Source: Candidatus Thorarchaeota archaeon
GTDB taxonomy: Archaea > Asgardarchaeota > Thorarchaeia > Thorarchaeales > Thorarchaeaceae
Direction of reading: 5' to 3'
NCBI GenBank assembly: GCA_011364905.1
Contig: RDNZ01000002.1
Location: 101,994 to 165,993, forward strand
Length of the DNA stretch: 64,000 bases
Shown: one piece after another, positions 10,718 through 41,431 of the stretch
Position numbering within the stretch: the first letter of the stretch is position 1
How the letters are laid out: every line of letters starts with the position of its first letter
Made by a program: the position numbers and the translations under genes
The notes under the pieces: model-generated
Told to the model about the DNA's origin: nothing
Database searches by the model: none
Seen by the model: the letters and a program-made list of their open reading frames with translations, nothing else

Positions 10718-10957
10718 TCAGCTCAAATCCCTCCAGTGGTTTTTACGGGATGTAAGGAGCATCTTCGATGTCACGTTCGAGTCCAATGGTTCATAGACCA
10801 ATTCCTCAGCAGGGTGCTCAGGCTCGGACTTAATATGAGTAGAGAGGGATAGATGACTCTGAGAAGAGAGATTGGATTTGAGGGTGGGAGAAAGAAGAGC
10901 CACGCAATCTATCCGAGCCTGAACCTGATTCTCCTTTTCACTATTATACAAATTCAT
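10718..10957 (-). CDS. Small hypothetical protein (79 aa), possibly translationally coupled
   Basis: ATGA overlap with the stop of the 10954-11553 ORF; ends just upstream of the giant protein ORF. No recognised domain. Confidence 0.4.
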   Translation of the reverse strand: MNLYNSEKENQVQARIDCVALLSPTLKSNLSSQSHLSLSTHIKSEPEHPAEELVYEPLDSNVTSKMLLTSRKNHWRDLS

Positions 10958-11553
10958 GCACCTCCACCCGCATACATAGTATAGTAAATGAAACCAAGAA
11001 TCATAATGAATCCAATGAACTCAATAGCGCCGCTTCGAGGCTTATTCTTCAAGGCAGCCACTACAAGAGAGAGGTCTCCGGACCGCAAGGAGCAGTTGAA
11101 AAGAATCCCGAGAGCCACCCACCAGAATACGAAAATCCAGAGTGGTTCCACATAGATCATTACGGGTAAGACTATCAAAGCAAATGCTGCAAAGACTGCA
11201 GCCACAACGTTCAGAAACAGGACAATGAGTACAATGCCTACTCTAGGTGGTCTGTCGACCTTGAGGAATACATTGATCTCGCCATAGGTTGATGAACTTC
11301 CAACATCTTCGACATCAACCCTGAATCCCTTGGCAATAAGAAATCGTATCCCCATATAAGCGAGGGTTCCCGGAAGGAAGACAATAGTAAGAAACGTCAT
11401 GAGCTTGTTTCTTGTCCAGTCCTCGAACTCGCGTTTCTGCCCAGACAACAACAGTAGGCCTCTCAGGATTGTGGCTCCAATGATTACATAGGGAGTCACA
11501 CTGAATGAGAAGAACAGATTGGCAAGCATCAACGTTCCAATGTCAGATTGCAC
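10954..11553 (-). CDS. Multi-TM membrane protein
   Basis: 199 aa, several hydrophobic segments (VGIVLIVLFLNVVAAVFAAFALIVLPVMIYV, IEFIGFIMILGFIYYTMYAG). Confidence 0.65.
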   Translation of the reverse strand: MQSDIGTLMLANLFFSFSVTPYVIIGATILRGLLLLSGQKREFEDWTRNKLMTFLTIVFLPGTLAYMGIRFLIAKGFRVDVEDVGSSSTYGEINVFLKVDRPPRVGIVLIVLFLNVVAAVFAAFALIVLPVMIYVEPLWIFVFWWVALGILFNCSLRSGDLSLVVAALKNKPRSGAIEFIGFIMILGFIYYTMYAGGGA

Positions 11554-11903: not shown

Positions 11904-12899
11904 TTACACAAAGCTTTCCAGTGTTGTCTGTGTGTTACCAAACATTTTCCATATATGCACCAGCTCACGGGTTTTGGCTTCTGCCCTATCCTTCCCCATT
12001 GCAGGTTGGAGAAGTCTGACAAGTCTCGGAGTTATGAGCGGCTTTAAGGTTAGGTCCACGCCCTTTGCACTCATAAATGAGGCTTCGTCAAAAACCTCTC
12101 TGGCCTCGATGTAGTCCTCTCTTTCAGACAGTTTCAGACCTCTTGCTTTCAGCAAATATCTCAGACCGCCATATCGTTTCAATTCAATTGCACCTTTCCG
12201 TGGTCCGAGACCCTTGATGCCTTTCTTATGAAAGTCACATCCGCAAACTATTGCTAGGTCTCGAAGCAGTTCAAGATCAAGGTCCAAAACTCGCTCCAGC
12301 TCACTAAGGGTTGTGTACTCCATGGTCCCCTTGGACAACTGAAGACTCTTGATGACGTGAGGACTGCCGAATAACAGGGCATCAGCGTCATTGGAAACCA
12401 CAGAACCTACTAGACCCTCTCGACACAGGACTGCACCAAACATCTCTGCCTCGGATGGCGATGTAATTGCGGGTATCCCTGCTGCACGACAAAGGTCTTT
12501 GACGTGATTGACTGCGAAGTACATCCTAACAGCAGGACTCTCTCTTAGTGACTCTACAATCTTAATGTCGTGTGTGTCCTGCTTGATGAGAAACCGTTCA
12601 TATAGCATGTGAGCTGTAGTTATGAGTTCAGGATTCGGTTTACGTTTCAGGGATTCAGGCGGTCCATCGAAAAATAGCGCTGGAAGAATATGGCGTTTAA
12701 GCGCTTGACGAATCAGTCCAAAGGTTATGTGAATATGTGCCATGGGTATCTTGTTCGATGAGATCGGTCGAATGGTGGACAACCTGCGCATCAAATAGTT
12801 GGGAGCATCGACTGCAATTTTGGGAGTGAACAGCTCTGAAACATTGGCCCACTTCCATGGCACCAGGTTCTGCCAGTTTTTCACTCCCATTCCAATCAA
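11904..12899 (-). CDS. FEN1/XPG-family 5' flap endonuclease-like protein
   Basis: IAVDAPNYLMRRL, ALFFDGPPESLKRKP, GIPAITSPSEAEMFGAVL, VSNDADALLFG, CGCDFHKKGIKGLGPRKG; C-terminal PIP-like TQTTLESFV. Confidence 0.85.
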   Translation of the reverse strand: MIGMGVKNWQNLVPWKWANVSELFTPKIAVDAPNYLMRRLSTIRPISSNKIPMAHIHITFGLIRQALKRHILPALFFDGPPESLKRKPNPELITTAHMLYERFLIKQDTHDIKIVESLRESPAVRMYFAVNHVKDLCRAAGIPAITSPSEAEMFGAVLCREGLVGSVVSNDADALLFGSPHVIKSLQLSKGTMEYTTLSELERVLDLDLELLRDLAIVCGCDFHKKGIKGLGPRKGAIELKRYGGLRYLLKARGLKLSEREDYIEAREVFDEASFMSAKGVDLTLKPLITPRLVRLLQPAMGKDRAEAKTRELVHIWKMFGNTQTTLESFV

Positions 12900-13615
12900 C
12901 CCGTTCCTTTGAGAGTCCTCGCTCCCTTGAGTCCCAGCCGCACCACCACTGGATCTGGTAGTGGATGAACAGGACTTCGTTCCACTTGTACTCTGAGACC
13001 ATCAGCTGCCATATTCATGCTTGCTATATGGACTGTTGTGTCCACGCCATGAGCAATCACATTCCCGCCAACTGGCTTCAGAGCGCCAGTGTCCCAGTCC
13101 CTGCTTGAGTGATCAGTCAAGGCAACATGAAGATCATTGTCATTCACTAGTATACGAAGAATCTCCAATGTGTGCTGAAGCGCACGCTGCCTACCCTTAG
13201 ATCCGATTCTACCACTCAGGTTAAGGATGCCTGTGAGACTATCCACTGCGACTACTCGAACGTCCCTCATGCAGCCTATCCCCTGTGCTAGTTCCTGCAG
13301 GTCCGAAAGCTCAAGCACCTGTCCCACTATCACATTTCTCAGCAGCTCAGCTTCCTTTCCAAGCAAGGCACGGGTGAGAGGTGAGCTAAAGTTATTCCCA
13401 GAATCGATGAATACACTCCGTCCTCCATTGAGAACACCACCAACAACAATTGCATGAGCTACAGTGGTCAGAGGTTTTCTCTCTGAGCTATGTATCAGAC
13501 TGATTTGGTTTGGTAGTATCACTTGTCCCAGAGTCTCATCCAATGGTCGTGGTCGTAACCGAACCAGTGATTCCTCATGAACTGGTATGTTATCAAGCGG
13601 TAGACTCTCCGGCAA
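12896..13615 (-). CDS. RecA/RadB-like ATPase paralog with degenerate Walker A
   Basis: ISLIHSSERKPLTTVAHAI at the Walker A position; DVRVVAVDSLTGIL Walker B-like; ATGA-type overlap with the FEN1-like gene. Confidence 0.65.
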   Translation of the reverse strand: MPESLPLDNIPVHEESLVRLRPRPLDETLGQVILPNQISLIHSSERKPLTTVAHAIVVGGVLNGGRSVFIDSGNNFSSPLTRALLGKEAELLRNVIVGQVLELSDLQELAQGIGCMRDVRVVAVDSLTGILNLSGRIGSKGRQRALQHTLEILRILVNDNDLHVALTDHSSRDWDTGALKPVGGNVIAHGVDTTVHIASMNMAADGLRVQVERSPVHPLPDPVVVRLGLKGARTLKGTG

Positions 13616-14582
13616 CCTCTACACCTCCCATCGATAATTGCGCAATATCACGACCAAGTAGAACGTGAGCCTCTCGACCATGTGGTAGCTGTTCGAGGTC
13701 GAATCCCGGTGCGGTATCACTTTTGATGACTACTCGTAACCCCGTTCTGTTTGGAAACACGGTGATACGATTAGGCCACATCTCAATAAGTTTCTTCACG
13801 GTGCTTTCCTCAACAGCCACCTTATACTCATTCAATGTCATGCCTATATCATCCTCCATTAGTGGAAGACTGAGTATCGCATTGGTCATGAAAAGTGAGA
13901 GAACCTGCAAGCTTTCAGCTCCCTTCTCAGCTAGTGCTTGCTGGACTTGTTTCAAGACCTTCTCTTCTCCTTCAGTTCGTACAATCAAGATGTCGCATTC
14001 TTCGTATCTTGTGATTGACACCGGAAGGAGTGGTCGTTCACGAAGAAGATCTAGGACTACTGCCCTCATACTATTCGGAAGGATTATTGCCTTCATGTTG
14101 AGCTTGTCAATGGACGTCCAAAATCTGCTATGTGAAACTGAACTCCGTCCTAGTATTGGAATCGAATGTCCAAAGGACGCCATTGGCTCCAGAAGGGCAG
14201 AAAATCGCTCCGTGATGCTACCAGGCTCTTTTATTCTGCTACAACCGATAATAGTTCCACCCATTGCGAGAAAAGCAGCAATCAATCCAAATGGTAATAC
14301 AACAAAGAGCATCACGACTCCTGTATAGACGATGCAAGCCCATGAAACCACATTGAGTAAAAGGGACAGTGGTTCCTTGGTTTCCCTGCGGGCGATAAAG
14401 AGCATAATGATGGTTCCTCCCCAAACAATGACAAGAGGCTGAATATTTCCTAGCCGCCATGCTAGGACCACAGAAGCAACAGAACTCAGTAGCTGCCCAC
14501 CCAGAAAAAGAGCAACCGCTCCCGCCAGAGCATATACCATTAAGCGGAAAATTGACTTTCCGAACATTCGCTTCTCCTCCAT
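13593..14582 (-). CDS. Membrane protein of unknown function (329 aa) with N-terminal TM segments
   Basis: Hydrophobic N-terminus (LMVYALAGAVALFLGGQLLSSVASVVLAWRLG, ACIVYTGVVMLFVVLPFGLIAAFLAM) and soluble C-terminus; overlaps both neighbours. Confidence 0.65.
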   Translation of the reverse strand: MEEKRMFGKSIFRLMVYALAGAVALFLGGQLLSSVASVVLAWRLGNIQPLVIVWGGTIIMLFIARRETKEPLSLLLNVVSWACIVYTGVVMLFVVLPFGLIAAFLAMGGTIIGCSRIKEPGSITERFSALLEPMASFGHSIPILGRSSVSHSRFWTSIDKLNMKAIILPNSMRAVVLDLLRERPLLPVSITRYEECDILIVRTEGEEKVLKQVQQALAEKGAESLQVLSLFMTNAILSLPLMEDDIGMTLNEYKVAVEESTVKKLIEMWPNRITVFPNRTGLRVVIKSDTAPGFDLEQLPHGREAHVLLGRDIAQLSMGGVEVAGESTA

Positions 14583-15196
14583 TCTTGAGTTGGTACTGAT
14601 AGTCGGACAACTCCTTTGATATCGATCATCATTCTTGCCAATGGGTTCCCATCAATCAACAATCTGGAGTCCCTCTCCAGGCTTCTCACTACCCGAATGT
14701 CCACTGGTTTCCAAATCAGAATTGATTCGTGCATCACTGGTGTAACTCGTTCTTCCAGACTGCGAACTTCACTCACAAGGACAACCTTTACTCCTCGCTC
14801 CGTTAGAGCAACCAATGATGGTAGAGCATTCTCGATCAAATCCCGACCCCACATTATCTCTTCGCGTCGAGTCATGTCAAGCACCCGTGTTATGGGGTCT
14901 ACTACAATTAACGATGTGTCATCTGGAAGCATCTCACAGACTGAGAGTATGCCCTCTTGTACCTCTTTATGTCCATTGAAAATGTTCACAGTGATTTTGC
15001 TGCTGTTTTTTGTATTGGATTTCAAAGCTCTCACAAAGGAGCGTTTTCCATCAGCACAGATCCATCTCACAATACCGTCTCTTGCAGCTTCTGCAGCAAG
15101 GGAGCAGGCTAGTAGGGTCTTCCCAGATCCAGCCTCACCCCAGATATGGAAAAGGTCGCCCATCCTCAACAAAACTTTAGCCCCCAGTACTACCAC
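14540..15196 (-). CDS. RecA-superfamily (RadB/KaiC-like) ATPase with intact Walker A
   Basis: LFHIWGEAGSGKTLLACSLAAEAAR; TSLIVVDPITRVLDM Walker B; VKVVLVSEVRS. Confidence 0.75.
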   Translation of the reverse strand: MVVLGAKVLLRMGDLFHIWGEAGSGKTLLACSLAAEAARDGIVRWICADGKRSFVRALKSNTKNSSKITVNIFNGHKEVQEGILSVCEMLPDDTSLIVVDPITRVLDMTRREEIMWGRDLIENALPSLVALTERGVKVVLVSEVRSLEERVTPVMHESILIWKPVDIRVVRSLERDSRLLIDGNPLARMMIDIKGVVRLSVPTQEWRRSECSESQFSA

Positions 15197-16859
15197 GCTC
15201 CTTCTTTCGGGTGGGAAAGTGAGTCCGTGATGATGAGCTTGTCACACTGTGACGCTGGAGTTTGCTTCGTTTAACAACCTGCTCACTGGTCTCATCCTCT
15301 GCAGCAAGGAGAACTTGGACCGACTCCGCTGGTTCTTCATCGACTGTCTTGGCAACGACCATAGGTGGGTCTGCAAACTCCTTTCTCGTCCGATCTGGTT
15401 CTTTTATGACCCTATCATTTGCTCCAGGGACTTCCTCTGTGTTTCCCATCACCTGCAAAAAACTGTCGAGTTCATCTTCACTCTCTGCACTAGCCGGAGC
15501 CATTTCCTCTCTTACAGGAGGTTCCTCCGGTTCAGCAAGATCCTTGTCAATCTCCATGACAATCTTTTTACTGGCATGAAGGTTGAGGATATCATCAATC
15601 CTGTTTTTCACTTCGGGACTCAGAGCACCAACATCAAAGAGAGCGTTGTTAAGAACTCCAAGGTGTCCGATAATCTCATGTTCCTTCAAAGGTGTGCTGC
15701 TATGTCCGGTAAGGCCAACATACGCTAGACCGAGAGCTTCTTCCTCACCCTCCCCGAATTCTAACCCGATGTTCTTGAATAAGCTCAAGAATTTTTCAAG
15801 ACCAGGATCACCAGAGAGATTAGGCATTTCGACAGTGCTAGTAGGAGTAAGCCTTACGCATTCATCTAATATTGTAAACAGGGAGCCCACTGATTTGTTG
15901 AAATCGCCAGTTTCTATAGATTCGGCAGCACTATCCATCAGCGGGGTCACTATGAAGTTTAGTGTGCCAACGAGTTCAAGTCGGTTAGCATTCTCCATTA
16001 TTGAAGATGTGACCCGGTTAGAATCTCCAACCTCAGACAAAGCAGAAACCTCTTCATTTAGAGCACTACGAAAGCTGCCTATTGCAGTGTTTGCTCCCTG
16101 GAGCATCCATGAACCAAGCAGAAATGATATGCAGAAAACGACAAGCGGGAAGATTAGTGTTCCATTATTCAATAACGCGCCTGCAATGCCGAACCCAGCC
16201 ATCACCCCCATGACAATACAGAGTATACCGAGCCAAGACCTCCTCAGACCTGTTTCTAAATCATCCCACTTAGTGGAGCTCACATTCTTCTGAACATCAT
16301 GCAAGTGAGATCGAGAGTCACTACTTAGCAGGAGTCCAAGTTCATTATCAGGTAAGATACGGGATGAATCAGTAAGCCACGATAAGTCTCTACGAGAGCT
16401 GCCCTCCTTGTATACAGCGTAGATAGTACGAGTTTCATGAATTAGGGATGATGATTTCGAATCAATGGACCTCATAACAGAGAACTCCACTCGCCCAAAT
16501 GACGATAGGAGAGACCTCGCCTCGAACGCGTCCAGTAGTCCTACATCTTTGAGGATGCTCTTCAAGGACCCATTGACACTTTCGAGTATTGCGGCTTGCA
16601 TAGCCAGAGTGGAGCGACCAAACCTGGCCTTCTTCAGGTCAAGTACATAAGCAACATCTACATAGACGCCCCTGGTTCCTGGAATGCCAACCAGTCGCAC
16701 TCCCAAGACCAACCCATTGGGATATTCTGCTGTTCTATGACCCGCTCCTTCTAGCACTCGAACAACGTCCGTGGTGGCCCGCTCCAAACTTGTGCCAATG
16801 GACGACTCACTCTCTTCTTCCTCAGTGATTTTTTCATCATCAACTGCTGTCATTAACAT
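15177..16859 (-). CDS. Membrane protein of unknown function (560 aa) with central TM pair and low-complexity acidic/basic C-terminus
   Basis: WLGILCIVMGVMAGFGIAGALLNNGTLIFPLVVFCISFLLGSW TM hairpin; overlaps both neighbouring genes. Confidence 0.65.
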   Translation of the reverse strand: MLMTAVDDEKITEEEESESSIGTSLERATTDVVRVLEGAGHRTAEYPNGLVLGVRLVGIPGTRGVYVDVAYVLDLKKARFGRSTLAMQAAILESVNGSLKSILKDVGLLDAFEARSLLSSFGRVEFSVMRSIDSKSSSLIHETRTIYAVYKEGSSRRDLSWLTDSSRILPDNELGLLLSSDSRSHLHDVQKNVSSTKWDDLETGLRRSWLGILCIVMGVMAGFGIAGALLNNGTLIFPLVVFCISFLLGSWMLQGANTAIGSFRSALNEEVSALSEVGDSNRVTSSIMENANRLELVGTLNFIVTPLMDSAAESIETGDFNKSVGSLFTILDECVRLTPTSTVEMPNLSGDPGLEKFLSLFKNIGLEFGEGEEEALGLAYVGLTGHSSTPLKEHEIIGHLGVLNNALFDVGALSPEVKNRIDDILNLHASKKIVMEIDKDLAEPEEPPVREEMAPASAESEDELDSFLQVMGNTEEVPGANDRVIKEPDRTRKEFADPPMVVAKTVDEEPAESVQVLLAAEDETSEQVVKRSKLQRHSVTSSSSRTHFPTRKKERGSTGG

Positions 16860-19020
16860 TCCTCCCTAATCGCTCTTCTATTCCCCCAAGGAGCCCACTG
16901 CTCAGTTCCACGAGTCTTGAGAGACCCCCTAATCCTGCAAGCACAACAATGCTGGCTAGCAACCATCGTGACCTCTCCAGTAGACTATATGCATCCCCCA
17001 CTGGAATACCAACGTTCTCTGAAATGTCTCTTATGGACATAGAAGTGGTAGCGGCGGCACCAATCAGGTTTTCAAACGACTCATCAAGCTCGGAAACAGA
17101 CTCCATCGACACAAGATGCCTTACGAGAGAGAGAAGCGAAACAGCATCCTCTGTGAATGGCATCATGGCCATTAGCTCTCGTATCGTCCTCATGCGGAGA
17201 TACAGCCTATTCACTGTCCTTCCGAGTCTTGTGATCTTGAAAGCGCCTTCCTTGCTTCCCTCAATGAGCCCCAATCGTGATAATGCACCTGTGGGACTAG
17301 ACTCTTCCATGGCGATGGGCACGATGTAGTTCGCTAGAGGTCGTATCTTTTCATTGCGTGATGCCTTGAGTCCGAGAGAAACCAGATGCATACAAAGGAT
17401 ACCAGTTTCATCCAATGGATTACCACATGAACAACTTGCACCTTCTACAGTGCCACTGGTCTGGAGTCGGGTGGAGAACCGACAGGTGAAGCTCCCACCT
17501 TGAAAACCTGAAACTATTCCTCCGAGGACATCCTCGCTGGTTTCCCTGATGCTGACGGAGCCTAGTGCGTCTTTTCTTGCAGCCTGAACTGTGTCAGGCA
17601 GGGCATGTTTCTCAATAACCGATTCCGCTGAGATCTCTCCGAGATGTAGGGGCCTCATGGGACTTCTAACATCTCTCACCGCGCAGAACACGAGATAAGA
17701 CTCGCTCATTATGTCCTCCATCTGTTTCACTGTGCTCTCATTCATGGTGTCAAGAAGGACAAGAATTTGCTCGGTAAGCGATGCCGCTGAACCGAGCCTA
17801 CTCCTCACTCTTTCATATCGAGGAATCAGGGTTTCACCAACCTCATCAAAGTATCTGCGCTTCACAAGCTCGCACTCACCTCTACTACTAGTGAGGATGA
17901 CACCAAAGCCCATAACATCATGTCCAGGTCTCCCCGCACGTCCAAGCATTTGATGGACTGTGTTAGCAGAGAGCATCTCTCTATGATCCTCCGGCGAACG
18001 ACAACTGGTGAGCACAACGGTACGAGCTGGGAGATCCATTCCTGCAGCTAGGGTAGATGTTGCACAGATTACACGTAACATGCCTTTTCTGAACAAGCGC
18101 TCCACCAAAGCTCTGACACTCGAGCTGAGTCCAGCATGGTGGAATCCTACGCCATTATGCAAGACTTTCCGTAGGGGCGCCGGAACTGTCATGAAGGATG
18201 TTTCTACAGAGTTAATTTCATCGTCCAGGGCTTTTCGCTCAATGGAACCAAGTTGCCTAATCACATTTTCAGACAATCGTTCAGCCTCAAGTTCAGCAAA
18301 CCTTCGGGTTCTGTGAAAGGTGATGACTTGACCGTTTGCCTGCACTACCGTCATCACTGTTTTTTGGACTGCTCGGGCCTTATCGGGTGTGTGGACTACC
18401 TTACAGACAAGCGGAACAGGACGCTCATCAGATGCAACAAGTCCGCAACCAAGCCATTCCGCTAGTTCATCTGGGTCCTTAACTGTGGCTGAGAGTGCTA
18501 CTATCTGCAGGTCGTCAATGCTTCGTTTCAAACGAAGGATAGTGCTTTCTAGTCTTGCTCCTCGTGTCGAGTCCGAAAGGTTTTGGACCTCATCTATGAC
18601 CACTGTTCCGACCTCTGGAAGCCACTCCACCTGGTGTCTCAACAGAGAGTCTGCTCGTTCATAGGTGGTCACAATGATGTCGTATTCTGCCATATCCTCT
18701 CCTGAAAGATGCAGGTCACCGGTAGTCACTCCAATTCTGATGGCATTTTCTTGGTACCGCTCTCTCAGAACTCGTGTTATCTGATATGCCAGAGCTCTTA
18801 GGGGTACCAAAAACAAGCCTCTTCGACCATTGAAAATCGATCTAAGCAGGCCCATCTCCCCCACCAATGTTTTTCCCGATCCTGTTGGAGCACTCACCAA
18901 TATACTGGCCCCATCAAGAAGACCCTTGTCAATTGCCTCAGTCTGAACACCCCTTGGTGTGACACCAACTTGCTCTAGCATCCGAGTGACACTTGCAGGG
19001 ATATCAGTGACAGACATCAT
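16840..19020 (-). CDS. Hel308-like superfamily 2 DNA helicase with SWIM-type zinc motif
   Basis: SAPTGSGKTLVGEMGLL, VVIDEVQNLSD, VALSATVKDPDELAEWLGC, ATSTLAAGMDLPARTVVL, QMLGRAGRPGHD; CSCGNPLDETGILCMHL (CxCx10CxH). Confidence 0.85.
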   Translation of the reverse strand: MMSVTDIPASVTRMLEQVGVTPRGVQTEAIDKGLLDGASILVSAPTGSGKTLVGEMGLLRSIFNGRRGLFLVPLRALAYQITRVLRERYQENAIRIGVTTGDLHLSGEDMAEYDIIVTTYERADSLLRHQVEWLPEVGTVVIDEVQNLSDSTRGARLESTILRLKRSIDDLQIVALSATVKDPDELAEWLGCGLVASDERPVPLVCKVVHTPDKARAVQKTVMTVVQANGQVITFHRTRRFAELEAERLSENVIRQLGSIERKALDDEINSVETSFMTVPAPLRKVLHNGVGFHHAGLSSSVRALVERLFRKGMLRVICATSTLAAGMDLPARTVVLTSCRSPEDHREMLSANTVHQMLGRAGRPGHDVMGFGVILTSSRGECELVKRRYFDEVGETLIPRYERVRSRLGSAASLTEQILVLLDTMNESTVKQMEDIMSESYLVFCAVRDVRSPMRPLHLGEISAESVIEKHALPDTVQAARKDALGSVSIRETSEDVLGGIVSGFQGGSFTCRFSTRLQTSGTVEGASCSCGNPLDETGILCMHLVSLGLKASRNEKIRPLANYIVPIAMEESSPTGALSRLGLIEGSKEGAFKITRLGRTVNRLYLRMRTIRELMAMMPFTEDAVSLLSLVRHLVSMESVSELDESFENLIGAAATTSMSIRDISENVGIPVGDAYSLLERSRWLLASIVVLAGLGGLSRLVELSSGLLGGIEERLGRNVNDSS

Positions 19021-21368
19021 ACCTCGGACCCAACCTCCTCTGATTGACGCAGAGCCATGCTACCCTTCATGGTTATCCGATAATTCTTGTAGGAAACTCC
19101 TGCATGGGACTCGCTACCACGAAGAATCAGACTCGCATTCTCCAACCGTGCAAGAATAGCCTCGATGTCAACCTCCGTATGGCCCTTTGCGTTGAGAAAA
19201 CGTCTGACAGACTCCTCAGTGAGAGGCTCGTAGCGGGTAAGGAGCTTAAGAATCTCTTTCACAGATGCTCTGTCTCGTCCTCCAACCACAGCAAGTAGTG
19301 TTTTTGGTTTCCCTGCTTCGGGCCCGTCATCCGTTTTAGTTAGACTAGGCCTCGGAAGCATGTCAACTCCCTCATTGGATAGTGTTCTAAGCCCTGGTTC
19401 AGGTGCAATCTTGAATGGCATACAAGTCTTTGCCTGTTCGTGCGACATGAGAGCATAGCCTCGCTCCATTACTCTCAGGAACGAACCTTCTCGCGATGAT
19501 TGACGCGCCTTGCTATGAATTCCTGTCCCAACAACATCTAATGACAAGAGGTCAGATACATAAGCAATATCAGCGGACTCCCGCAACCTTAGAGCGATAC
19601 ATGAACCAAAGGCGTCCGCCGCATCCCACATTAAGGCTGATGGGTTGTTTACACTGAGTATAAGAGGTCCTCTCTTGAGGAGCCTCCGAACGATTCTCTC
19701 AGCCATTACCCCCCGTTTGGTATACCTGAAAGTGCTTTTATTTGTGACAAGATGTTCAGGCATATCAATGACAGTGACCAAATCAGATTCTTTTGCAAGT
19801 CCTGACAATTTGAGGCTCATAAGATCCAGTGCAAACATATCGAGATCAAGAGCTCCAATCGCGAGGTTCACAACTACAAGCTCATGAGAGGCGATCCTAC
19901 TAAGAGAAATCGTCTGAGTACCATAGAATGCTTTTGCTCCTGACCCCTGATAGAGCCTCTTGATGGCATCGAGCGCAAGTGCTGAAGACTTGGATAATCT
20001 AACATTCTGTGGAGGGACTGCACCCTCCTGAAGGGATTCATGCTCAGGATCAATAACTACATCGGCGAGTGTTCCATTCCCGAGAGCAACCACTCTGCTC
20101 AATGCAACCTCAAAGTCAGCGGCTGGGCTGAGATTAGTCCCAGCAAGAGTTTCCAATAGCAGTAGCAACTCCGAAACATACTGTGTTCTGGGAATTCCCT
20201 CAGAGTCCACAGGATTCAGTACAAAGTCCTTCCCGAGACTAACGGCGAGACCGCTGGAGCTGACACCAGCCAGACTTTGGCAATCATCGTTTATTGTGAG
20301 CACTAGAACCTTCTTTCCCTTGGCTAAAATCTGGTCAATAAGAACACTGAGAACTTGCTTTCGATCCCGCCAATCTCCTCCGCATAATAAGAGACCACGT
20401 TCAAGGTCAGAATGCATCAACCCCACTGAGGGACCTGTCTTTAGGGTTTCGGGATTCACAACAACGCCCAGAGGGTAGTCATCAGACCTGCTTCTTATTG
20501 GCGCAATGAACTCCCCCGGAACGTTACTTCCCACCTCAGGACCTAGTTCGCTTGGCAGTTGTACTAGCCACTCTGCCAACTCCTTTCCTGTGGCAAAGAA
20601 AGTGGGCGAACTGCTACAGAGGTCCCACTCTTCAAGTCTTTGGCCAAGGTCTTTCTCCTTCAACCTCCTAAAGCCGCTGTCAGGAACACTCCCTTTCACT
20701 TGCCCCTCAACTAGTCGGACGTCAGATTCCGTATGAGAATGTCCAACAAAATACAGCTGTGAACGCCAGAGCCCCCCCCGTGCATGAAAGTAGGTCTTCC
20801 TCTGTGATGAGGAAATATGATTGAGATATCTCTCGATTATGGAAGTGACAACACCATCTCTTGCAACCTGTTTTGAGTCAGATGGAAACAGATCTGCAAC
20901 CATCAAGAAACCATGTGAACTGTCTAGACCTCGAAGAAGTTTGCTTAGATTTCCTTGTAGGATTGGCCGAGCTTTCTTCATGTTGAGTGCAATGAGATGG
21001 CTTTCCTTTCCAAGACCCCTACAATGTAGCGATTTTTTCTCTTCACTGTAACTCACATCTGGGTCGGGTACCCTATACCAACTAGTATCATCGAGCGACC
21101 GAGTTTCAAGGTAGTTTTGAATCAAGGGCAGAACAAGCATCAGCATTAGGATTATTCCAGTAATGAATATCGTGACATAAGGCAGCTGAATCACTGTAAT
21201 CATAATAACCAATGAGAGTCCAAGAGCATAATCCCATGGAAGCTTGACTGACCTGTCATCCCATCGTATCTCTGTGTCTGTCGTTATGGTCATGCCAGAC
21301 GCCTCAAGCTGGTCCATAGGATCCTGCGCAGGCTCTGAGCCCATGATGTTCCCTCGTTTCTTAGTCAA
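19017..21368 (-). CDS. Membrane-anchored HerA/VirB4-like protein with degenerate Walker motifs and C-terminal winged-helix-like region
   Basis: N-terminal TMs (YALGLSLVIMITVIQLPYVTIFITGIILMLMLVLPLI); HerA/VirB4-like order RGLLLCGGDWRDRKQVLSVLIDQILAKGKKVLVL, FVLNPVDSEGIP, LVTVIDMPEHLVT, GPLILSVNNPSALMWDAADAFGSCIALRL. Confidence 0.6.
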   Translation of the reverse strand: MTKKRGNIMGSEPAQDPMDQLEASGMTITTDTEIRWDDRSVKLPWDYALGLSLVIMITVIQLPYVTIFITGIILMLMLVLPLIQNYLETRSLDDTSWYRVPDPDVSYSEEKKSLHCRGLGKESHLIALNMKKARPILQGNLSKLLRGLDSSHGFLMVADLFPSDSKQVARDGVVTSIIERYLNHISSSQRKTYFHARGGLWRSQLYFVGHSHTESDVRLVEGQVKGSVPDSGFRRLKEKDLGQRLEEWDLCSSSPTFFATGKELAEWLVQLPSELGPEVGSNVPGEFIAPIRSRSDDYPLGVVVNPETLKTGPSVGLMHSDLERGLLLCGGDWRDRKQVLSVLIDQILAKGKKVLVLTINDDCQSLAGVSSSGLAVSLGKDFVLNPVDSEGIPRTQYVSELLLLLETLAGTNLSPAADFEVALSRVVALGNGTLADVVIDPEHESLQEGAVPPQNVRLSKSSALALDAIKRLYQGSGAKAFYGTQTISLSRIASHELVVVNLAIGALDLDMFALDLMSLKLSGLAKESDLVTVIDMPEHLVTNKSTFRYTKRGVMAERIVRRLLKRGPLILSVNNPSALMWDAADAFGSCIALRLRESADIAYVSDLLSLDVVGTGIHSKARQSSREGSFLRVMERGYALMSHEQAKTCMPFKIAPEPGLRTLSNEGVDMLPRPSLTKTDDGPEAGKPKTLLAVVGGRDRASVKEILKLLTRYEPLTEESVRRFLNAKGHTEVDIEAILARLENASLILRGSESHAGVSYKNYRITMKGSMALRQSEEVGSEV

Positions 21369-21638
21369 CTAGGTCCTTCCCCCTTGTCTTGCCAAGACTT
21401 TCAACATCATCTTAATGCGAATCAGCATTTTCTGATCTGAAGAGTTCACCACTAGTGAATCGTTCATAATGACCAGCTCAGGATGCTCATGCTTCGAAGG
21501 ATGCCCGAGTACCATTAGAACTGGCTCCTTGGATACAGTTGTCCAAGTGTATCCATGGCCCCGTTTCAGGAAGTCCATCACCGCGTCAGCCTCCACACCT
21601 GATGGAATGTTTAGTGATACATCCTCACCCACTGACAA
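21369..21638 (-). CDS. Small conserved-looking protein (89 aa) within the DNA-processing cluster
   Basis: Directly abuts the HerA/VirB4-like ORF and overlaps the next upstream ORF by 14 nt. Confidence 0.6.
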   Translation of the reverse strand: MSVGEDVSLNIPSGVEADAVMDFLKRGHGYTWTTVSKEPVLMVLGHPSKHEHPELVIMNDSLVVNSSDQKMLIRIKMMLKVLARQGGRT

Positions 21639-22218
21639 CGCCTCCTGTGTTCACCAGTTGCATCTCGTAGAGTCCTGCACGCTCCACAGGTGTATGAGGA
21701 TAGGATGAACGCATGGCACTCTCTAACGTTGTCACATCATCAAACACCTTCTCAGCCAACATCCTGATTATGCGTGCCCCATTCCAAAATCGGAGAGACC
21801 GTCTGACAACCTGCATACCAACCAGCGTTGAGTTGTCATCCAAAGGGCGACACACGAAGAACCGAACCTCACATTGACTCTCTTTCTTGAACTGCTCACT
21901 CATAGCTCTCAGTACCTGTTTGGCTGCGTGCGAAACATCAATCCCCAAGGGTACGCTAGCCAGTAAGCAACCTGCTTGAACCTCTACAGTCCAATTGCGA
22001 CGAATGGCCATGGTGCCGGTTGCCTCATCCCAGAATACAACGACGGGTCGTTTCCATAAAACGAAGAGAGCGATTACTAGAGACGCTAAACCAATCCCAA
22101 CCAAGGTCTCGAAAGCAAATCTTCCTTTGGGGTCCATGATGATTCTAGTTGACCATGCCGCCAGAACAGCAGCTGGAACAGTCCATTTCACCCACTCATA
22201 ATCCTGGTAATTCCTCAT
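21625..22218 (-). CDS. Membrane protein of unknown function (197 aa)
   Basis: N-terminal TM hairpin (WTVPAAVLAAWSTRIIMD..., LVGIGLASLVIALFVLW); cluster position. Confidence 0.6.
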   Translation of the reverse strand: MRNYQDYEWVKWTVPAAVLAAWSTRIIMDPKGRFAFETLVGIGLASLVIALFVLWKRPVVVFWDEATGTMAIRRNWTVEVQAGCLLASVPLGIDVSHAAKQVLRAMSEQFKKESQCEVRFFVCRPLDDNSTLVGMQVVRRSLRFWNGARIIRMLAEKVFDDVTTLESAMRSSYPHTPVERAGLYEMQLVNTGGVVSG

Positions 22219-22221
22219 TCA

Positions 22222-24159
22222 TCACACCCTCCTCACAAACATCCCGATGGCGTCTCGCAGCTCATCCTCTCCTCTGTATGGCCAGAGATCTGCGGCTGTG
22301 TCCTCTCCGAATACGTCAATGTGTTTCAAGAACCGCTTGTCTAATAGCACAACTATGCCTTGATCCTCCGGTGACCTCCTGAGTCTTCCTGCCATTTGTG
22401 CAACTTTTCGTATTGATGGTACAACCACAGCATAATAGTACCCTGAGCCAGCTCCGTATCTTCGATCATAGAAGTCCTGCAACGCTTTTTGATGACTTGT
22501 CGGAGGACTGAATGGTATCCCCACACCAATAATGAGGTCCACCATGCTAGACCCCGCCTCCACCAAGTCTACTCCTTCGCTCACCTTTCCACCATAAACA
22601 CAGAACAAGGCATGGGGCTGCGAGGCGAGAGCTTCCTTCACATCATCAATTCTACTGCGTCTATCCTCAATAAGACGCTCTCGAAATCCTGCGTTTACTC
22701 CAAAACTCAAGACATCTCGCATGATTGCATAGCTCGGGAAAGCAATCATGGCGCTCTTGTTGGCGGGAACTGCCTCGAGTACGGTTTCGATCCTCTCACT
22801 CAAAGTACGCCAAAGGTCAGGTCCTCTGGACTTGTAGCTTGTTGATACTTCTCTGTCCACTAGAATGAGCCTTGTTCCTCGTGGATAGGGACTGGAAAGT
22901 TCCTCACCTTTTGCACTACCAATTCCAAGTATTCGTTTGTAGTGAGAGAGTGGTCTCAGAGTTCCAGACATAAGGAGCGAGGAGCGTGCCATCCTGAGTA
23001 TCGGAGCAATTAGTCCAGCAGCATTCAGTGGACGAATCTTCAGGATAACGCGCATGATGTCTTGGTGCTCCTCCCAGCCGGTTGACTTCTCAATGGTGAC
23101 CAACCAGTCATCACTCTCGGTAGCTTTTCTTCCAGCATAGAGGAAAGACACTAGTCGATCCACTGGTGTGTCAACAGGGACAGTCTCATCCGCACCTTCA
23201 AGCAGAGTACTATACTCGATGAGCTGTTCCAAATCGCCTTGTGCAGCAAAACGCGGATAAGCGTCCCACTTGTCAAGACATCGTTCGTCCTTCAATGTGT
23301 CGAGATTCACCGAAACGGTCTCCCAAAGAAAATCGACTGTTTCCTCCAACCAACGCACACCAGTTTCTTTGACGATGTCGCGCTTGTGCTCTCTGAGCCA
23401 TAGCAAGTCAGCCCCACGCAGCTCCGCAGCCTCAGCCTCTAGAACATGAGATGAGAGGTTATGAGCCTCATCCACAAGGATGTCAATCTCGTACAAGCCA
23501 ATTCCTAGCGATGAAAGAAGGGCCATTTGGACACGGCTTCTAAACAGGTAGTCATAGGGACCAACAATGACTCTACTTTTCTTAGCGCACCATCTAAGCA
23601 CCTCGTAGGGACACATACCATTGTCACGGCCAACATCCTCAGCTACCGACTGACTCACGACATTGTCTTTGAGGAGCTCATCTATAGTTTCTAGGAATGC
23701 CTGACGAGGTTGATGTCGTCCATCAGCATTTCTTCTGTAGCAATTCCAATAATAGGTGCAGTTGCCCGTTTTGACAAGGGCTGCGCACTCACGCATGAAA
23801 CCCAACGAAGAAATATGCCTCATCTGACCCTTCATGGGACACACGTGTTTCCTAGAAACCATGCTGGTAGCTGTAAGCAGTGTATCCTGGGTGTAGATGC
23901 GTAATTGTGTGAGTTCTTCCTCGAACACCTTTGATTGCGAGTGAGTTCGGGTAAGCACGAGTAATCGTGACTCAGGATCATTCACACGTGCAGCCAAGTA
24001 ACCGGACAGAGCCGCAATGGTCTTTCCGATTCCGCAGTCGGCAGAGAGTAGACCCACCGTTCCCTCAGAGAATACTTCCTCTGCATATCGTAATGCGCGT
24101 TCTTGGTGCGGTCGTGGCTCATAGGGGAACCAGTCCATTGGGTCAGGTAGAGTTGCCAT
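22222..24159 (-). CDS. XPD/DinG/Rad3-type Fe-S superfamily 2 helicase
   Basis: LLSADCGIGKTIAALSGYLAAR, ILVDEAHNLSSH, RKVAQMAGRLRRSPEDQG; Cys set KHVCPMKGQ...MRECAALVKTGNCTYYWNC between motifs Ia and II. Confidence 0.85.
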   Translation of the reverse strand: MATLPDPMDWFPYEPRPHQERALRYAEEVFSEGTVGLLSADCGIGKTIAALSGYLAARVNDPESRLLVLTRTHSQSKVFEEELTQLRIYTQDTLLTATSMVSRKHVCPMKGQMRHISSLGFMRECAALVKTGNCTYYWNCYRRNADGRHQPRQAFLETIDELLKDNVVSQSVAEDVGRDNGMCPYEVLRWCAKKSRVIVGPYDYLFRSRVQMALLSSLGIGLYEIDILVDEAHNLSSHVLEAEAAELRGADLLWLREHKRDIVKETGVRWLEETVDFLWETVSVNLDTLKDERCLDKWDAYPRFAAQGDLEQLIEYSTLLEGADETVPVDTPVDRLVSFLYAGRKATESDDWLVTIEKSTGWEEHQDIMRVILKIRPLNAAGLIAPILRMARSSLLMSGTLRPLSHYKRILGIGSAKGEELSSPYPRGTRLILVDREVSTSYKSRGPDLWRTLSERIETVLEAVPANKSAMIAFPSYAIMRDVLSFGVNAGFRERLIEDRRSRIDDVKEALASQPHALFCVYGGKVSEGVDLVEAGSSMVDLIIGVGIPFSPPTSHQKALQDFYDRRYGAGSGYYYAVVVPSIRKVAQMAGRLRRSPEDQGIVVLLDKRFLKHIDVFGEDTAADLWPYRGEDELRDAIGMFVRRV

Positions 24160-24161
24160 CC

Positions 24162-24749
24162 TTATTCCCCCAGGTACAGACAGTTCTCGGCATTATGTAT
24201 TCTGAACTTTAGAGAAAAGTAGGAGCGAAGCAACAGATGGAATGTCTTTGCCGCTGCTGGCGAGTTGAAACCGTTCTTTTTGCCCACCATGCTTTCCAGT
24301 ATCTGAGGGCTGAAACCTCTTCTGCGAGCTTGTCTCCAGAAGGTTCTCTCCACCTCCTCTACTGTGGCTTTATAGAAGTCAAGTGTCTGCTTCACTACTC
24401 GTTGGAGATACTGCACAGCCTCCTTGGCCCTATGAGGGATCTCTGATACCTTCGTTTCAGTGGGGAGATAGACCGCCATACCTTCCCTGCTTTCAAGGTA
24501 CACCTCCGAAGGTACACCTCTGGTACCACGTAGAACCTCAAGATGAGACAGAAGTCGCGGCAGCTGCGAGAGGGTAGGTCTTGCTCTATCTCGCCAATCC
24601 ACCGTCGTGACCACATATAATTCTGGGTCAGGTTCGTGGTAAGCAACTGGAACGGTGGTCAGTCTGTGGGATGTATCACGCATTAAGAGGTTGGTCATGT
24701 TTATGACAGATGCATGGGATTGATACGCAGGAGGCAGAACCACTGCCAT
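24162..24749 (-). CDS. Uncharacterised protein (195 aa) in the DNA-processing cluster
   Basis: Overlaps the upstream ORF by 1 nt, 2 nt from the XPD-like gene; no recognised motif. Confidence 0.6.
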   Translation of the reverse strand: MAVVLPPAYQSHASVINMTNLLMRDTSHRLTTVPVAYHEPDPELYVVTTVDWRDRARPTLSQLPRLLSHLEVLRGTRGVPSEVYLESREGMAVYLPTETKVSEIPHRAKEAVQYLQRVVKQTLDFYKATVEEVERTFWRQARRRGFSPQILESMVGKKNGFNSPAAAKTFHLLLRSYFSLKFRIHNAENCLYLGE

Positions 24750-25189
24750 CAGTATTCGTCCCCCACTGCTTTCAGAATCCCATCCATGTTCACAATTAAG
24801 TCCTCGTCCTCCAGCTGGTCTAAGAACCTAACAGCCTTGTCGATTTCGATGCCTGCTTCCTCGCACTCTTGAAGGACCCTATCACGACTCACTCCTGTTC
24901 CACGATTCAAGTCACTGAGGTCAGACACTATATTCAGCACGCGCTTCTTGACACCAAGACCATGTCTCGACTTGGACCTATGCGTAGTTGGTTTCCTCCA
25001 GACAATCCTCTGTATCTCTAGAAGAGCTCCCTCAACTGAATCGACATACTTCCAATCAGGACTAGGCTCGATTCTTCTGGAACAGAGATTGCACTTTGAT
25101 TCCTCATCCTCACTGTACACAGTAGCGTATCCGGTATAGCCGCAATGAGGACACATGAAGATTCTGTACATCTGTTCCTTTGAGGTCAC
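24749..25189 (-). CDS. Zinc-ribbon plus winged-helix-like protein (146 aa)
   Basis: FMCPHCGYTGYATVYSEDEESKCNLCSRRIEPSPDWKYVDSVEGALLEIQRIV; C-terminal RDRVLQECEEAGIEIDKAVRFLDQLEDEDLI. Confidence 0.65.
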   Translation of the reverse strand: MTSKEQMYRIFMCPHCGYTGYATVYSEDEESKCNLCSRRIEPSPDWKYVDSVEGALLEIQRIVWRKPTTHRSKSRHGLGVKKRVLNIVSDLSDLNRGTGVSRDRVLQECEEAGIEIDKAVRFLDQLEDEDLIVNMDGILKAVGDEY

Positions 25190-26256
25190 TCCTCTTGCTC
25201 CTCCTCCTCAGTCTTCTTTCCCTTCTTCTGTTTCTTCTCGTCCTCGTCATCATCCGGCGAACCTAGAGACCCAAGTTTCTCAGAGATCATCTTTTCGGCG
25301 TTTTTCTTCTCTGTTGCATCGTTGTATAGACCGCCCCAGCCAATATGTACCTCAACATCAAACTCCGGAACTCCCGAGTTGTCCTTGAGTGAAATCTTCC
25401 GCTTCTTCTGCGCTCCGACCCTTGTGAAGAACCGATAGTCAGATGCGTGACTCAGAACATGACCACCAACAGGTGCAGATGGGTTTCCAGACCCATAGGT
25501 AGAGATTTGAGTCGTCACCTGATTTGTATACACAAAGATGGCATCGGTTGCAAGACCAAGACGACGCATCCAGTTCATCAGGGAGTTGATACTATACTGA
25601 CGAGATGCCAAAGTACCGATGCCAGTGTACTCCTGCCGAAACAGACCGGTAAAGGAGTCTATCACCAGCATGCTGTACTCGCCTTCAGCCAGCATGAGTT
25701 GAATCTGCTCGGCATACTCCTCCATCTGACTGCTGAGCGCAATAGTTGCCACACTAATGTTACCAAGCACAACCTCTGGATCCAAGCCCCACCGTATCGC
25801 ATTTGCACGGATATGCTTGGTTTTGAAAGATGACTCCGTGTCCAACCACAAGATCCTTCCTTCTAAGCCGCCTTGTTCAAGGGGCAACTGGCACCTCACT
25901 GCAAGATGGTGACAGAGGAAAGTCTTCCCTCCTCGCGCATTACCGTATATCTCAACTATTGATCCTGCTTCCAAACCGCCGAAAAGCTTGCTATCCAAGC
26001 TTTCAATACCGAACTTCAGACGCGGGACCTCTGCTTGTTGCTTCTCCAGTTCAATTCCTGACTTGAACCCAAATTTCCCAGTGACATCTCGTGCGTTTCG
26101 TATGATCTTCGCAACGGTTGCTTCACCCAACTTGGTGCGAGTCTGAAGGTCAATAGGATTCTGAACACTGAGTATTTCAGCGGTCGTGACGAAAGCTTCT
26201 TTGAGCCGCTTCGCCGCTGCGGGGCCGACACCTGGAACTGCCTCCACATCGGTCAA
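25186..26256 (-). CDS. radA: RadA recombinase (divergent) with HhH N-terminus and charged C-terminal tail
   Basis: VPGVGPAAAKRLKEA (HhH), GNARGGKTFLCHHLAVRCQLP (Walker A), SMLVIDSFTGLFR (Walker B), VYTNQVTTQIS, PVGGHVLSHASDYRFF. Confidence 0.85.
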   Translation of the reverse strand: MTDVEAVPGVGPAAAKRLKEAFVTTAEILSVQNPIDLQTRTKLGEATVAKIIRNARDVTGKFGFKSGIELEKQQAEVPRLKFGIESLDSKLFGGLEAGSIVEIYGNARGGKTFLCHHLAVRCQLPLEQGGLEGRILWLDTESSFKTKHIRANAIRWGLDPEVVLGNISVATIALSSQMEEYAEQIQLMLAEGEYSMLVIDSFTGLFRQEYTGIGTLASRQYSINSLMNWMRRLGLATDAIFVYTNQVTTQISTYGSGNPSAPVGGHVLSHASDYRFFTRVGAQKKRKISLKDNSGVPEFDVEVHIGWGGLYNDATEKKNAEKMISEKLGSLGSPDDDEDEKKQKKGKKTEEEEQEE

Positions 26257-26693
26257 CTGCCAATCATCTCCTCGATTGGCCCCCTCAAAGGCACGAGTTT
26301 CTTGAAGGAGTCAAGCTCCCTACGAGGAATCAAGACTTCCTTTCCATTTCGATAGAGGTCCATTCCTGGAAACAGCGAAACCACAGCTTGCTGTCGTATT
26401 GGCGGTAATGAGAAGCTAAGTCCTTGAGAAGTCATTTCTCCCACGACACTTACATAACCCCCTAAGGTCTCATACAATGACCCGTCTTTGGGAGTCGTCC
26501 CAGGTTCAGCTGGTGGGACCTCCAGCATGAATTTGAAGAGGTCCTCTAGTGACTCGAAGAAATCCCTCCAGTCGGGTCTTGCTTCTCGATGAAATACCTC
26601 GTTGATTCCCGCCTTAGCTCCAGCGATCCAAGCTGGATCAGGTAGTTCATCTATACTATTTGTACTACTTTGCAGATATTCCTGAATGTACAT
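26253..26693 (-). CDS. Uncharacterised protein (146 aa), paralog of the 38169-38636 product
   Basis: Shares WIAGAKAG/WLAGAAAG, AEPGTTPK/AEPGTSPK, YETLGGYVSVVGEMT/YDTLGGYVSVTGEVT and VPLRGPIEE/VPLEGPVSE with the 38169 ORF; ATGA overlap with radA. Confidence 0.7.
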   Translation of the reverse strand: MYIQEYLQSSTNSIDELPDPAWIAGAKAGINEVFHREARPDWRDFFESLEDLFKFMLEVPPAEPGTTPKDGSLYETLGGYVSVVGEMTSQGLSFSLPPIRQQAVVSLFPGMDLYRNGKEVLIPRRELDSFKKLVPLRGPIEEMIGS

Positions 26694-37415: not shown

Positions 37416-38168
37416 ATGCTTACGCAACTCGAGACTCAACTGATTGCGGCTCACAAAGAAGCAAAGGGAATGGGCATGGTAGATGTCACCCTACCGATTC
37501 AAGTGATGTTCAGTAACACCGACAGGACCATCCTCAAGGCAAGACTAAGATACCATGGGTCAGACAGGGATGCAAGTCTGATCATGATTGTTGGACTGAG
37601 AAGTGAAATTCTTTCCCCATTTCAACGGTTTGAAACTGATAGAAAAGGGAGATACCTTCCTTGTGACATTCTGGGTATTGTTCCAGGAATGGCTTTGATG
37701 GTCACATCAATCAATACAGGACTAGCACTTACAGCAATAGCCAAAGATGACGCCACAAGACTCGTTCTTGTTTTCGAGGGAGTTTCACAGAGAAAAGGTG
37801 GCAGCATGAAAGCTCTATCTGCATCGATTCAAAATTTCTTCAAACGCTGGGATGAGTGGATTGATGTTCTCCTTGGAATCATTCAAAGAGACCCCTTAGT
37901 AGCAGAATGGTCAATTGATTGGAGAGAATACCTTGCCGGTGAGTCGGGTTTTACATTGATGAATTGGTTCAAGCCCATGTCATTCTCAGAACGCGAATTG
38001 GCATTGCAGAGAGTTGTAGCAGCTTCAAAGGCGTTACTAACTTCAGTACTAAATGCACAGCAGCTGAGAGACCCCATGATACTTGGTCTAAAGGAGTGGT
38101 TGGTTGACCTTCAACCTTTACCGGAGGTCCTTAGAAGTGTTCAAATCAGCGAGGAGGTGGAAATCTAG
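37416..38168 (+). CDS. Uncharacterised protein (250 aa), apparent operon partner of the 38169 gene
   Basis: Stop at 38168 immediately followed by the GTG start at 38169. Confidence 0.65.
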   Translation: MLTQLETQLIAAHKEAKGMGMVDVTLPIQVMFSNTDRTILKARLRYHGSDRDASLIMIVGLRSEILSPFQRFETDRKGRYLPCDILGIVPGMALMVTSINTGLALTAIAKDDATRLVLVFEGVSQRKGGSMKALSASIQNFFKRWDEWIDVLLGIIQRDPLVAEWSIDWREYLAGESGFTLMNWFKPMSFSERELALQRVVAASKALLTSVLNAQQLRDPMILGLKEWLVDLQPLPEVLRSVQISEEVEI

Positions 38169-38636: not shown

Positions 38637-38691
38637 CGAAAGTGAAGGCGCTATAAGATTTGACCCCCGTTAGAACAATGAGATTGTTCAT

Positions 38692-40623: not shown

Positions 40624-40699
40624 TTATGAATTTGGCTCAACTTATCAATATAGGATACAAAGCTTAGGAGCTTATTAGCATAGAGCAACACAATAGTCT

Positions 40700-41293: not shown

Positions 41294-41431
41294 TAATTCG
41301 CCCCCCCTCATTGCAAATTCAATTGTCAACGCACAAAGAGCGCTAGTACTTCTGGATATTCACTGAGTGTTCAAGCGGCGATAACGCAAAATCTGTCTGT
41401 AACGCTCATTAATACCGCAATGAATTACGAA

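What the first reader, a model, noticed from the sequence alone, without database searches (positions are those of the whole stretch)
11904..26693. About 14-gene overlapping cluster coupling RadA, two helicases, a HerA/VirB4-like membrane protein, RecA paralogs and a flap nuclease
Seen: from the ORF at 26693 down to 11904, all genes are on the minus strand with overlaps or gaps of only a few nt, so very likely one transcript. Known families read from motifs: RadA, XPD/DinG Fe-S helicase, HerA/VirB4-like, Hel308-like helicase, RecA/RadB-like ATPases and FEN1/XPG. They are interleaved with at least three TM proteins (21625, 15177, 13593), a zinc-ribbon/wH protein and several unknowns. Inference: a membrane-associated homologous recombination, DNA exchange or uptake, or stalled-fork processing complex. 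In Crenarchaea a VirB4/HerA homolog (CedB) works in DNA import, and Hel308/XPD/FEN1 have repair roles, but I know of no single operon joining all these with several TM subunits.
Basis: partly seen in the sequence, partly recalled or inferred. Interest (0 to 1): 0.88.

Follow-up and report, generated by a model that had tools for sequence, protein, structure and literature searches.

The report
Asgard membrane-linked second recombination operon
This archaeon, from the group closest to eukaryotes, carries a tightly packed 14-gene operon holding a complete spare set of DNA-recombination enzymes together with membrane proteins, and comparison with relatives ties it to a giant cell-surface protein and shows it being swapped between lineages, which points to a dedicated DNA uptake or exchange machine that I found described nowhere.

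Summary
All 14 minus-strand genes (26693 to 11904) are separated by at most 3 nt or overlap. The same order recurs in about 20 genomes of at least 12 genera of the family (Thorarchaeia), at roughly 25-80% protein identity; diverged versions occur in other Asgard families. RadA, Hel308, XPD and FEN1 are second copies: housekeeping versions lie elsewhere in operon-bearing genomes. Operon-linked RadAs separate from canonical Asgard RadAs by one branch (95/92). Corrections: the HerA/VirB4-like protein lacks Walker A in every lineage aligned (pseudo-ATPase); one RadB-like protein is a RadA paralogue without Walker A; the Hel308-like helicase carries an invariant SWIM finger; the flap nuclease keeps a PCNA-binding-like tail. 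The unit also includes a 199-aa membrane protein and a 2287-aa toroid/Ig-repeat surface protein: in this genome and two relatives the native site lost both segments but kept the genes between them, and this genome carries a diverged complete unit nearby. The genus is not monophyletic for the operon (AU p 2e-9). Best reading: an exchangeable membrane-anchored system that imports or exchanges DNA and recombines it (0.45). Function is inferred, not shown; no published description was found.

The parts
26253..26693 (-). gene a: 146 aa, conserved, no known family; first gene of the operon
   Evidence: conserved in 17 relatives; a paralogue a' sits at 38169-38636
25186..26256 (-). gene b: RadA2, 356 aa, HhH + RecA core, Walker A and B intact; second RadA
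   Evidence: canonical RadA at G000:C78
24749..25189 (-). gene c: Zn-ribbon (4 Cys) plus winged-helix-like tail, 146 aa
   Evidence: homologues in other Asgard families
24162..24749 (-). gene d: 195 aa, unknown, highly conserved (59% mean column identity), seen only in this family and only with the operon
22222..24159 (-). gene e: XPD2, SF2 Fe-S helicase, helicase motifs and candidate Fe-S cysteines conserved; second XPD
21625..22218 (-). gene f: 1-2 TM segments plus soluble domain (SVP.GID ... YPH), related to the membrane N-terminal module of h in other families
21369..21638 (-). gene g: 89 aa, unknown, conserved
19017..21368 (-). gene h: 783 aa, 2 TM segments, HerA/VirB4-fold pseudo-ATPase (Walker A replaced by CGG....R), C-terminal winged-helix-like domain
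16840..19020 (-). gene i: Hel308-like SF2 helicase with SWIM zinc finger (CxC...CxH), 726 aa; second Hel308
15177..16859 (-). gene j: 560 aa, 2 TM segments, unknown
14540..15196 (-). gene k: RecA-core ATPase, Walker A intact, 218 aa
13593..14582 (-). gene l: 4-5 TM segments plus C-terminal soluble region, 329 aa, unknown
12896..13615 (-). gene m: RadA/RadB-like paralogue without Walker A, 239 aa
   Evidence: hhalign to b probability 100, E 8.6e-60
11904..12899 (-). gene n: FEN2, XPG-family flap nuclease, acidic residues kept, C-terminal PIP-box-like Q.(T/S)LE; second FEN1
10954..11553 (-). gene o: about 5-TM protein, 199 aa, conserved partner gene
3843..10706 (-). giant surface protein: 2287 aa, hydrophobic N-terminus, alpha/alpha toroid, Ig-like (Big) repeats, C-terminal hydrophobic segment
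   Evidence: same architecture inside the cluster of another family
37416..38636 (+). native-site remnant: a0 (37416-38168) and a' (38169-38636), which lead into b..n in relatives
38692..41293 (.). native-site remnant: 643-aa gene (38692-40623, -) and 197-aa gene (40700-41293, +), which lie between n and o in relatives

Best explanation
This is an accessory system of Asgard archaea that couples the cell envelope to a dedicated second homologous-recombination toolkit, most likely to bring in DNA from outside or from a partner cell and recombine it into the chromosome. Shown from sequence: a 14-gene operon conserved through the family, plus a 5-TM protein and a giant toroid/Ig surface protein, both missing together with b-n from the native site in three genomes and both present with the relocated unit in this genome (in G002 these two genes could not be checked because its contigs end first). 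Also shown: second copies of RadA, Hel308, XPD and FEN1 that retain their catalytic motifs, and a HerA/VirB4-fold membrane protein without Walker A. Inferred steps: (1) the surface protein binds a partner cell or DNA; (2) f, h, j, l and o form a membrane complex in which h is a docking ring or gate and not the motor; (3) the XPD2 and Hel308-SWIM helicases draw in or strip the strand; (4) RadA2 is loaded with the help of k and the Walker-A-less RadA paralogue m, in the manner of RAD51 paralogues and SWIM-domain mediators; (5) FEN2, through its PCNA-binding-like tail, trims flaps after strand invasion.
For: Strict conserved order and overlaps in about 20 genomes. Linkage of SWIM-Hel308 and h on one contig within about 2-18 kb in 21 genomes of other families (my count). 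Second copies beside housekeeping RadA (13 of 14 genomes), XPD (11 of 11), HerA (14 of 14), canonical Hel308 in most, and canonical FEN1 in this genome; the three same-family genomes tested in which the operon was not found keep only one XPD. Joint absence of b-n and of o plus giant from the native site, with the genes between them kept, in G000, G002 and G005. A toroid/Ig surface protein also lies inside the cluster of a second family. Fast evolution: canonical RadA 85-96% identical across the family against about 50-70% for RadA2. Horizontal exchange: AU p 2.4e-9. Precedent for coupling import to recombination genes: Ced/Ted (PMC9905601, PMC11868833).
Against: h lacks a Walker A in every lineage aligned, so the obvious translocation motor is missing from the operon. 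No pilin, VirB6/CedA or ComEC homologue was recognised among the operon proteins. No functional or expression data exist. The direction of DNA movement, and even whether DNA crosses the membrane, is not shown. The surface protein could serve recognition unrelated to DNA.
Confidence: 0.45

Rival explanations
1. Membrane-tethered repair or fork-restart complex: RadA2, SWIM-Hel308, XPD2 and FEN2 act on the cell's own broken or stalled DNA at a membrane anchor.
For: All enzymes are of repair families and keep catalytic motifs; FEN2 keeps a PCNA-binding-like tail.
Against: Housekeeping copies of the same enzymes exist; the system is patchy, fast-evolving and horizontally exchanged; a giant extracellular Ig/toroid protein is lost with it.
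Confidence: 0.25
2. Defence or inter-strain conflict system that recognises and processes foreign DNA at the envelope.
For: Patchy presence, cassette-like replacement and rapid divergence are typical of conflict systems. PADLOC helicase models match e and i, though only as general SF2 helicases.
Against: No PADLOC model matches d, f, h, j, l or n, and b and k only weakly; no toxin or sensor module seen; a full strand-exchange set suits keeping DNA better than destroying it.
Confidence: 0.13
3. Domesticated or decayed conjugative or integrative element.
For: HerA/VirB4-type protein related to intact large VirB4-like proteins elsewhere in the genomes; relocation of the unit.
Against: No relaxase, integrase or pilin recognised in the operon; presence across many Asgard families with stable order within this family; no relative of h in a scan of viral contigs.
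Confidence: 0.1
4. Cell-cell fusion or mating machine that merges genomes and then recombines them.
For: Giant surface protein plus a dedicated second recombinase set; archaeal fusexin elements carry HerA/VirB4 genes (PMC9259645).
Against: No fusogen was recognised; fusion was not tested.
Confidence: 0.07

Closest known systems
Ced system (Sulfolobales) and Ted system (Thermoproteales) for DNA exchange
   Same: Membrane-anchored HerA/VirB4-type proteins with TM plus N-terminal domain; polytopic membrane subunits; DNA import feeds homologous recombination; Ted loci sit beside herA and rad50 genes (PMC9905601, PMC11868833).
   Different: Here the HerA/VirB4-type subunit has no Walker A; no CedA/CedA1 relative was recognised; the recombination enzymes are in the same operon as the membrane genes and include RadA, Hel308, XPD and FEN1 paralogues.
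HerA-NurA-Mre11-Rad50 end-resection operon
   Same: HerA-fold protein within a recombination gene set.
   Different: h is predicted membrane-bound and lacks Walker A; no nurA, mre11 or rad50 in the operon; canonical HerA is encoded elsewhere.
Asgard RadA paralogue clade of Matsuo et al. 2025 (PMC12722695)
   Same: Two RadA clades in part of the Asgard archaea.
   Different: That study used recombinase sequences only, and its main text mentions no operon or gene neighbourhood; whether its second clade equals operon RadA2 was not tested here.
Eukaryotic RAD51-paralogue / SWS1 (SWIM) mediator modules
   Same: Recombinase, diverged recombinase paralogues and a SWIM-domain protein working together (analogy from general knowledge).
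   Different: Here the SWIM finger is in a Hel308-like helicase; no evidence of descent was sought.

Membership tests
Ced/Ted DNA-exchange systems | Active HerA/VirB4-type ATPase (CedB/TedB) | tested here: not met
   Walker A absent in h of all lineages aligned; fold relationship supported
Ced/Ted DNA-exchange systems | CedA/TedA (VirB6-like) channel and CedA1/TedC pilin | tested here: inconclusive
   j, l and f gave no convincing Pfam hit, l and f no NCBIfam hit; o was scanned in Pfam only; no profile comparison with CedA was possible
HerA-NurA resection machinery | HerA ATPase with Walker A plus NurA nuclease in an operon | tested here: not met
   h lacks Walker A; no NurA among the 14 proteins by Pfam
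HerA/FtsK/VirB4 superfamily (fold) | Co-linear profile similarity to HerA or VirB4 | tested here: met
   Pan-Asgard h profile: HerA probability 94.4, E 8.6e-8, 277 columns; VirB4-like probability 97.9, E 5.7e-13, 450 columns; the Thor-only profile alone does not reach significance
RadA/Rad51 recombinases (gene b) | HhH domain, Walker A/B, RadA core | tested here: met
   Rad51 3.9e-57, HHH_5 4.9e-7; GKT and Walker B Asp conserved
RadA, canonical Asgard clade (gene b) | Groups with housekeeping RadA | tested here: not met
   Canonical and operon sets split by one branch, 95/92
Hel308 helicases (gene i) | Ski2/Hel308 helicase core | tested here: met
   below equivalog cut-off
SWIM zinc finger (gene i) | CxCx(n)CxH | tested here: met
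   Invariant in 13 sequences; Pfam SWIM hits 3 members, best 7.7e-7, but not the window sequence
FEN1/XPG nucleases (gene n) | XPG-N and XPG-I domains with catalytic acids | tested here: met
XPD/Rad3 helicases (gene e) | Fe-S cysteines, DEAH box, helicase C-terminal domain | tested here: met
   cysteines judged by position in the alignment
Known anti-phage defence systems | Match of the gene set to PADLOC models | tested here: not met
   Only general helicase and ATPase matches in the 10 proteins scanned
Membrane-bound complex | Subunits located in the membrane and touching one another | not testable with these tools
   Hydropathy only

The most novel reading that the evidence does not exclude
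Asgard archaea possess a widespread, exchangeable machine that joins a giant cell-surface recognition protein and a HerA/VirB4-derived membrane complex to a complete, dedicated second recombination toolkit (RadA2 with a Walker-A-less RadA paralogue, SWIM-Hel308, XPD2, FEN2): a prokaryotic sex-like DNA-exchange apparatus in the lineage next to eukaryotes, with its own duplicated recombinase.
Probability: 0.35. Interest if true: 0.93.

Novelty: categorically new. Interest (0 to 1): 0.8.

Why it matters
How Asgard archaea take up or exchange DNA is, to my knowledge, not worked out, and the origin of meiotic recombination is usually traced through RadA duplications alone. This operon gives a whole machine around a second RadA, with candidate surface, membrane and recombination subunits, present in many Asgard families and testable by expression, structure and interaction work. 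A natural joint loss and replacement helps to define its parts.

Tried and rejected
A first RadA tree used wrong-strand fragments and was discarded. Apparent absence of h in G008 and G023 was rejected as absence: their contigs end inside the operon. A chance gene string and an ordinary housekeeping repair cluster were rejected because order is conserved and housekeeping copies lie elsewhere. A viral-contig scan for h found no relative. Paper searches for the operon found only RadA-tree, Ced/Ted and general papers. Bacterial-type promoter scanning was not done, as it does not cover archaeal promoters.

Full report
1. What is there. The window is part of contig C25 of a 3.08 Mb draft genome, about 81% complete. 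The nearest named record found is Candidatus Thorarchaeota SMTZ1-45. Fourteen ORFs run on the minus strand from 26693 to 11904 with junctions between -43 and +3 nt. Families: b RadA, e XPD, i Hel308-like, n FEN/XPG, k and m RecA/RadB-like, h HerA/VirB4-like; the rest are unknown. Hydropathy predicts TM segments in f, h, j and l.

2. Conservation. Relatives of h were found in 32 of 59 genomes, nearly all the strong ones in the same family. In the fetched loci every gene a-n appears in the same order and strand wherever the contig reaches, at roughly 25-80% identity, in at least 12 genera (genera counted from the handles). Junctions stay within about -41 to +50 nt, with one exception of 183 nt. 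Such constancy of gene-end overlaps over this divergence indicates one transcription unit. Co-transcription itself was not measured.

3. Second copies. Canonical RadA scores 438-507 bits in 13 of 14 Asgard genomes (the 14th, G052, showed only its operon copy), and operon copies score 224-348. Housekeeping XPD is present in 11 of 11 genomes. The five family members tested that carry the operon have two; the three tested in which the operon was not found (G005, G016, G036) have one. Canonical HerA is present in 14 of 14. Canonical Hel308 is found in most but not in this draft, and canonical FEN1 is in this genome on contig C26. In a tree of 32 sequences the operon RadAs and canonical RadAs are separated by a single branch with support 95/92. 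This fits one old duplication, but the root is not fixed and long branches are present.

4. Which subunits look active. From the alignments: b and k keep GKT; e keeps helicase motifs and the candidate Fe-S cysteines; i keeps helicase motifs; n keeps the catalytic acids. FEN2 ends in a PIP-box-like Q.(T/S)LE tail in nearly all members. m is a RadA relative (hhalign probability 100, E 8.6e-60) without Walker A. h has CGG....R where Walker A should be, in its own family and in the other Asgard families aligned. The pan-Asgard h profile aligns with canonical Asgard HerA (probability 94.4, E 8.6e-8, 277 columns) and with large Walker-A-positive VirB4-like proteins elsewhere in these genomes (probability 97.9, E 5.7e-13, 450 columns). 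The Thor-only profile does not reach significance by itself; PDB HerA chains appear weakly. The Hel308-like protein carries CxC...CxH, invariant in 13 sequences from many families; Pfam SWIM recognises three of them.

5. Beyond the family. In 138 Asgard genomes, strong matches to the SWIM-Hel308 C-terminal part and to h lie on one contig within about 2-18 kb in 21 genomes outside the family (counted by me). About seven have both on different contigs. Several families lack both. In these distant loci h is often split into a membrane protein related to f and a separate pseudo-ATPase, beside RadA2, RecA-k, Zn-ribbon c, FEN2 and polytopic proteins, in varying order. Gene d was found only in this family and only with the operon.

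6. Two more subunits, and a natural joint loss. A 5-TM protein (o, 10954-11553) and a 2287-aa protein (3843-10706) with an alpha/alpha toroid and Ig-like repeats follow the operon in relatives. A 1645-aa toroid plus Ig protein lies inside the cluster of another family (G052). In sister genome G009 the order is a0-a-b..n, then a 643-aa-type gene on the other strand, a 197-aa-type gene, o, giant. In this window at 37416-43420, in G002 (L187) and in G005 (L186) the order is a0-a'-643-197 followed directly by the next flank gene. Both b..n and o-giant are missing, while the genes between them remain. This window carries a complete diverged a-n plus o plus giant unit 11 kb away. G002 carries the matching a-n genes on two other contigs, but one stops within i and the other within n, so whether o and the giant gene travel with it there is unknown. 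No h, d, strong SWIM-Hel308 or second XPD was found in G005, a 92% draft. Joint loss of two separated segments argues that b-n, o and the giant protein work together. The three genomes may share a single ancestral loss, so this is not three independent events.

7. Exchange and speed. A tree of d+e+h splits the genus into two distant groups (window, G002, G014 against G009, G012, G013, G007, G010, G003); holding the genus together is rejected (AU p 2.4e-9; some long branches exist). Canonical RadA is 85-96% identical to this genome's copy across the family, whereas RadA2 is about 50-70%.

8. Interpretation. The parts suggest a membrane complex with a surface arm, feeding a dedicated recombinase set. 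Patchiness, exchange and speed are unlike housekeeping repair. DNA import or exchange followed by recombination is my leading reading (0.45); membrane-tethered repair (0.25), defence (0.13), element relic (0.10) and fusion or mating (0.07) remain. The missing Walker A in h means that the motor would have to be a helicase of the operon or a VirB4-like protein encoded elsewhere; this is untested.

9. Known work. Ced and Ted couple VirB4/HerA-type import to recombination (PMC9905601, PMC11868833). Two RadA clades in some Asgards were reported in December 2025; the main text of that paper contains no mention of an operon or gene neighbourhood (PMC12722695). I found no description of this operon, but the library lacks most subscription papers and bioRxiv.

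Noticed in passing
window 37416-43420; L186; L187: Scar of the native operon site: a0, a' and two flank genes kept, b-n and o-giant gone.
   Followed up: yes
L054:11912-14962, L133:13489-16092: Membrane proteins with M28 peptidase domains (one also weakly nicastrin-like) beside the diverged clusters in two other families.
   Followed up: partly
L203:1311-5003 (G018:C54), L202:129-3521 (G022:C2): Large VirB4-like proteins with intact Walker A elsewhere in the genomes; possible active partners or relatives of h.
   Followed up: partly
window 10954-11553; L057:1-185: Gene o resembles by eye a membrane segment of an L057 ORF that has a HEISH motif, so it might be a degenerate M50-type protease; not tested.
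   Followed up: no
window 29991-30959 and 31031-32020: Two TFB-type transcription factors (about 73% identical) lie near the operon, as in several relatives.
   Followed up: no
L058:86-1198: CRISPR-like repeats directly upstream of the compact cluster in G040, seen as a repeated peptide in the translated frames.
   Followed up: no
window 38692-40623: Conserved 643-aa protein of unknown function that normally sits between n and o on the opposite strand and evolves fast.
   Followed up: partly
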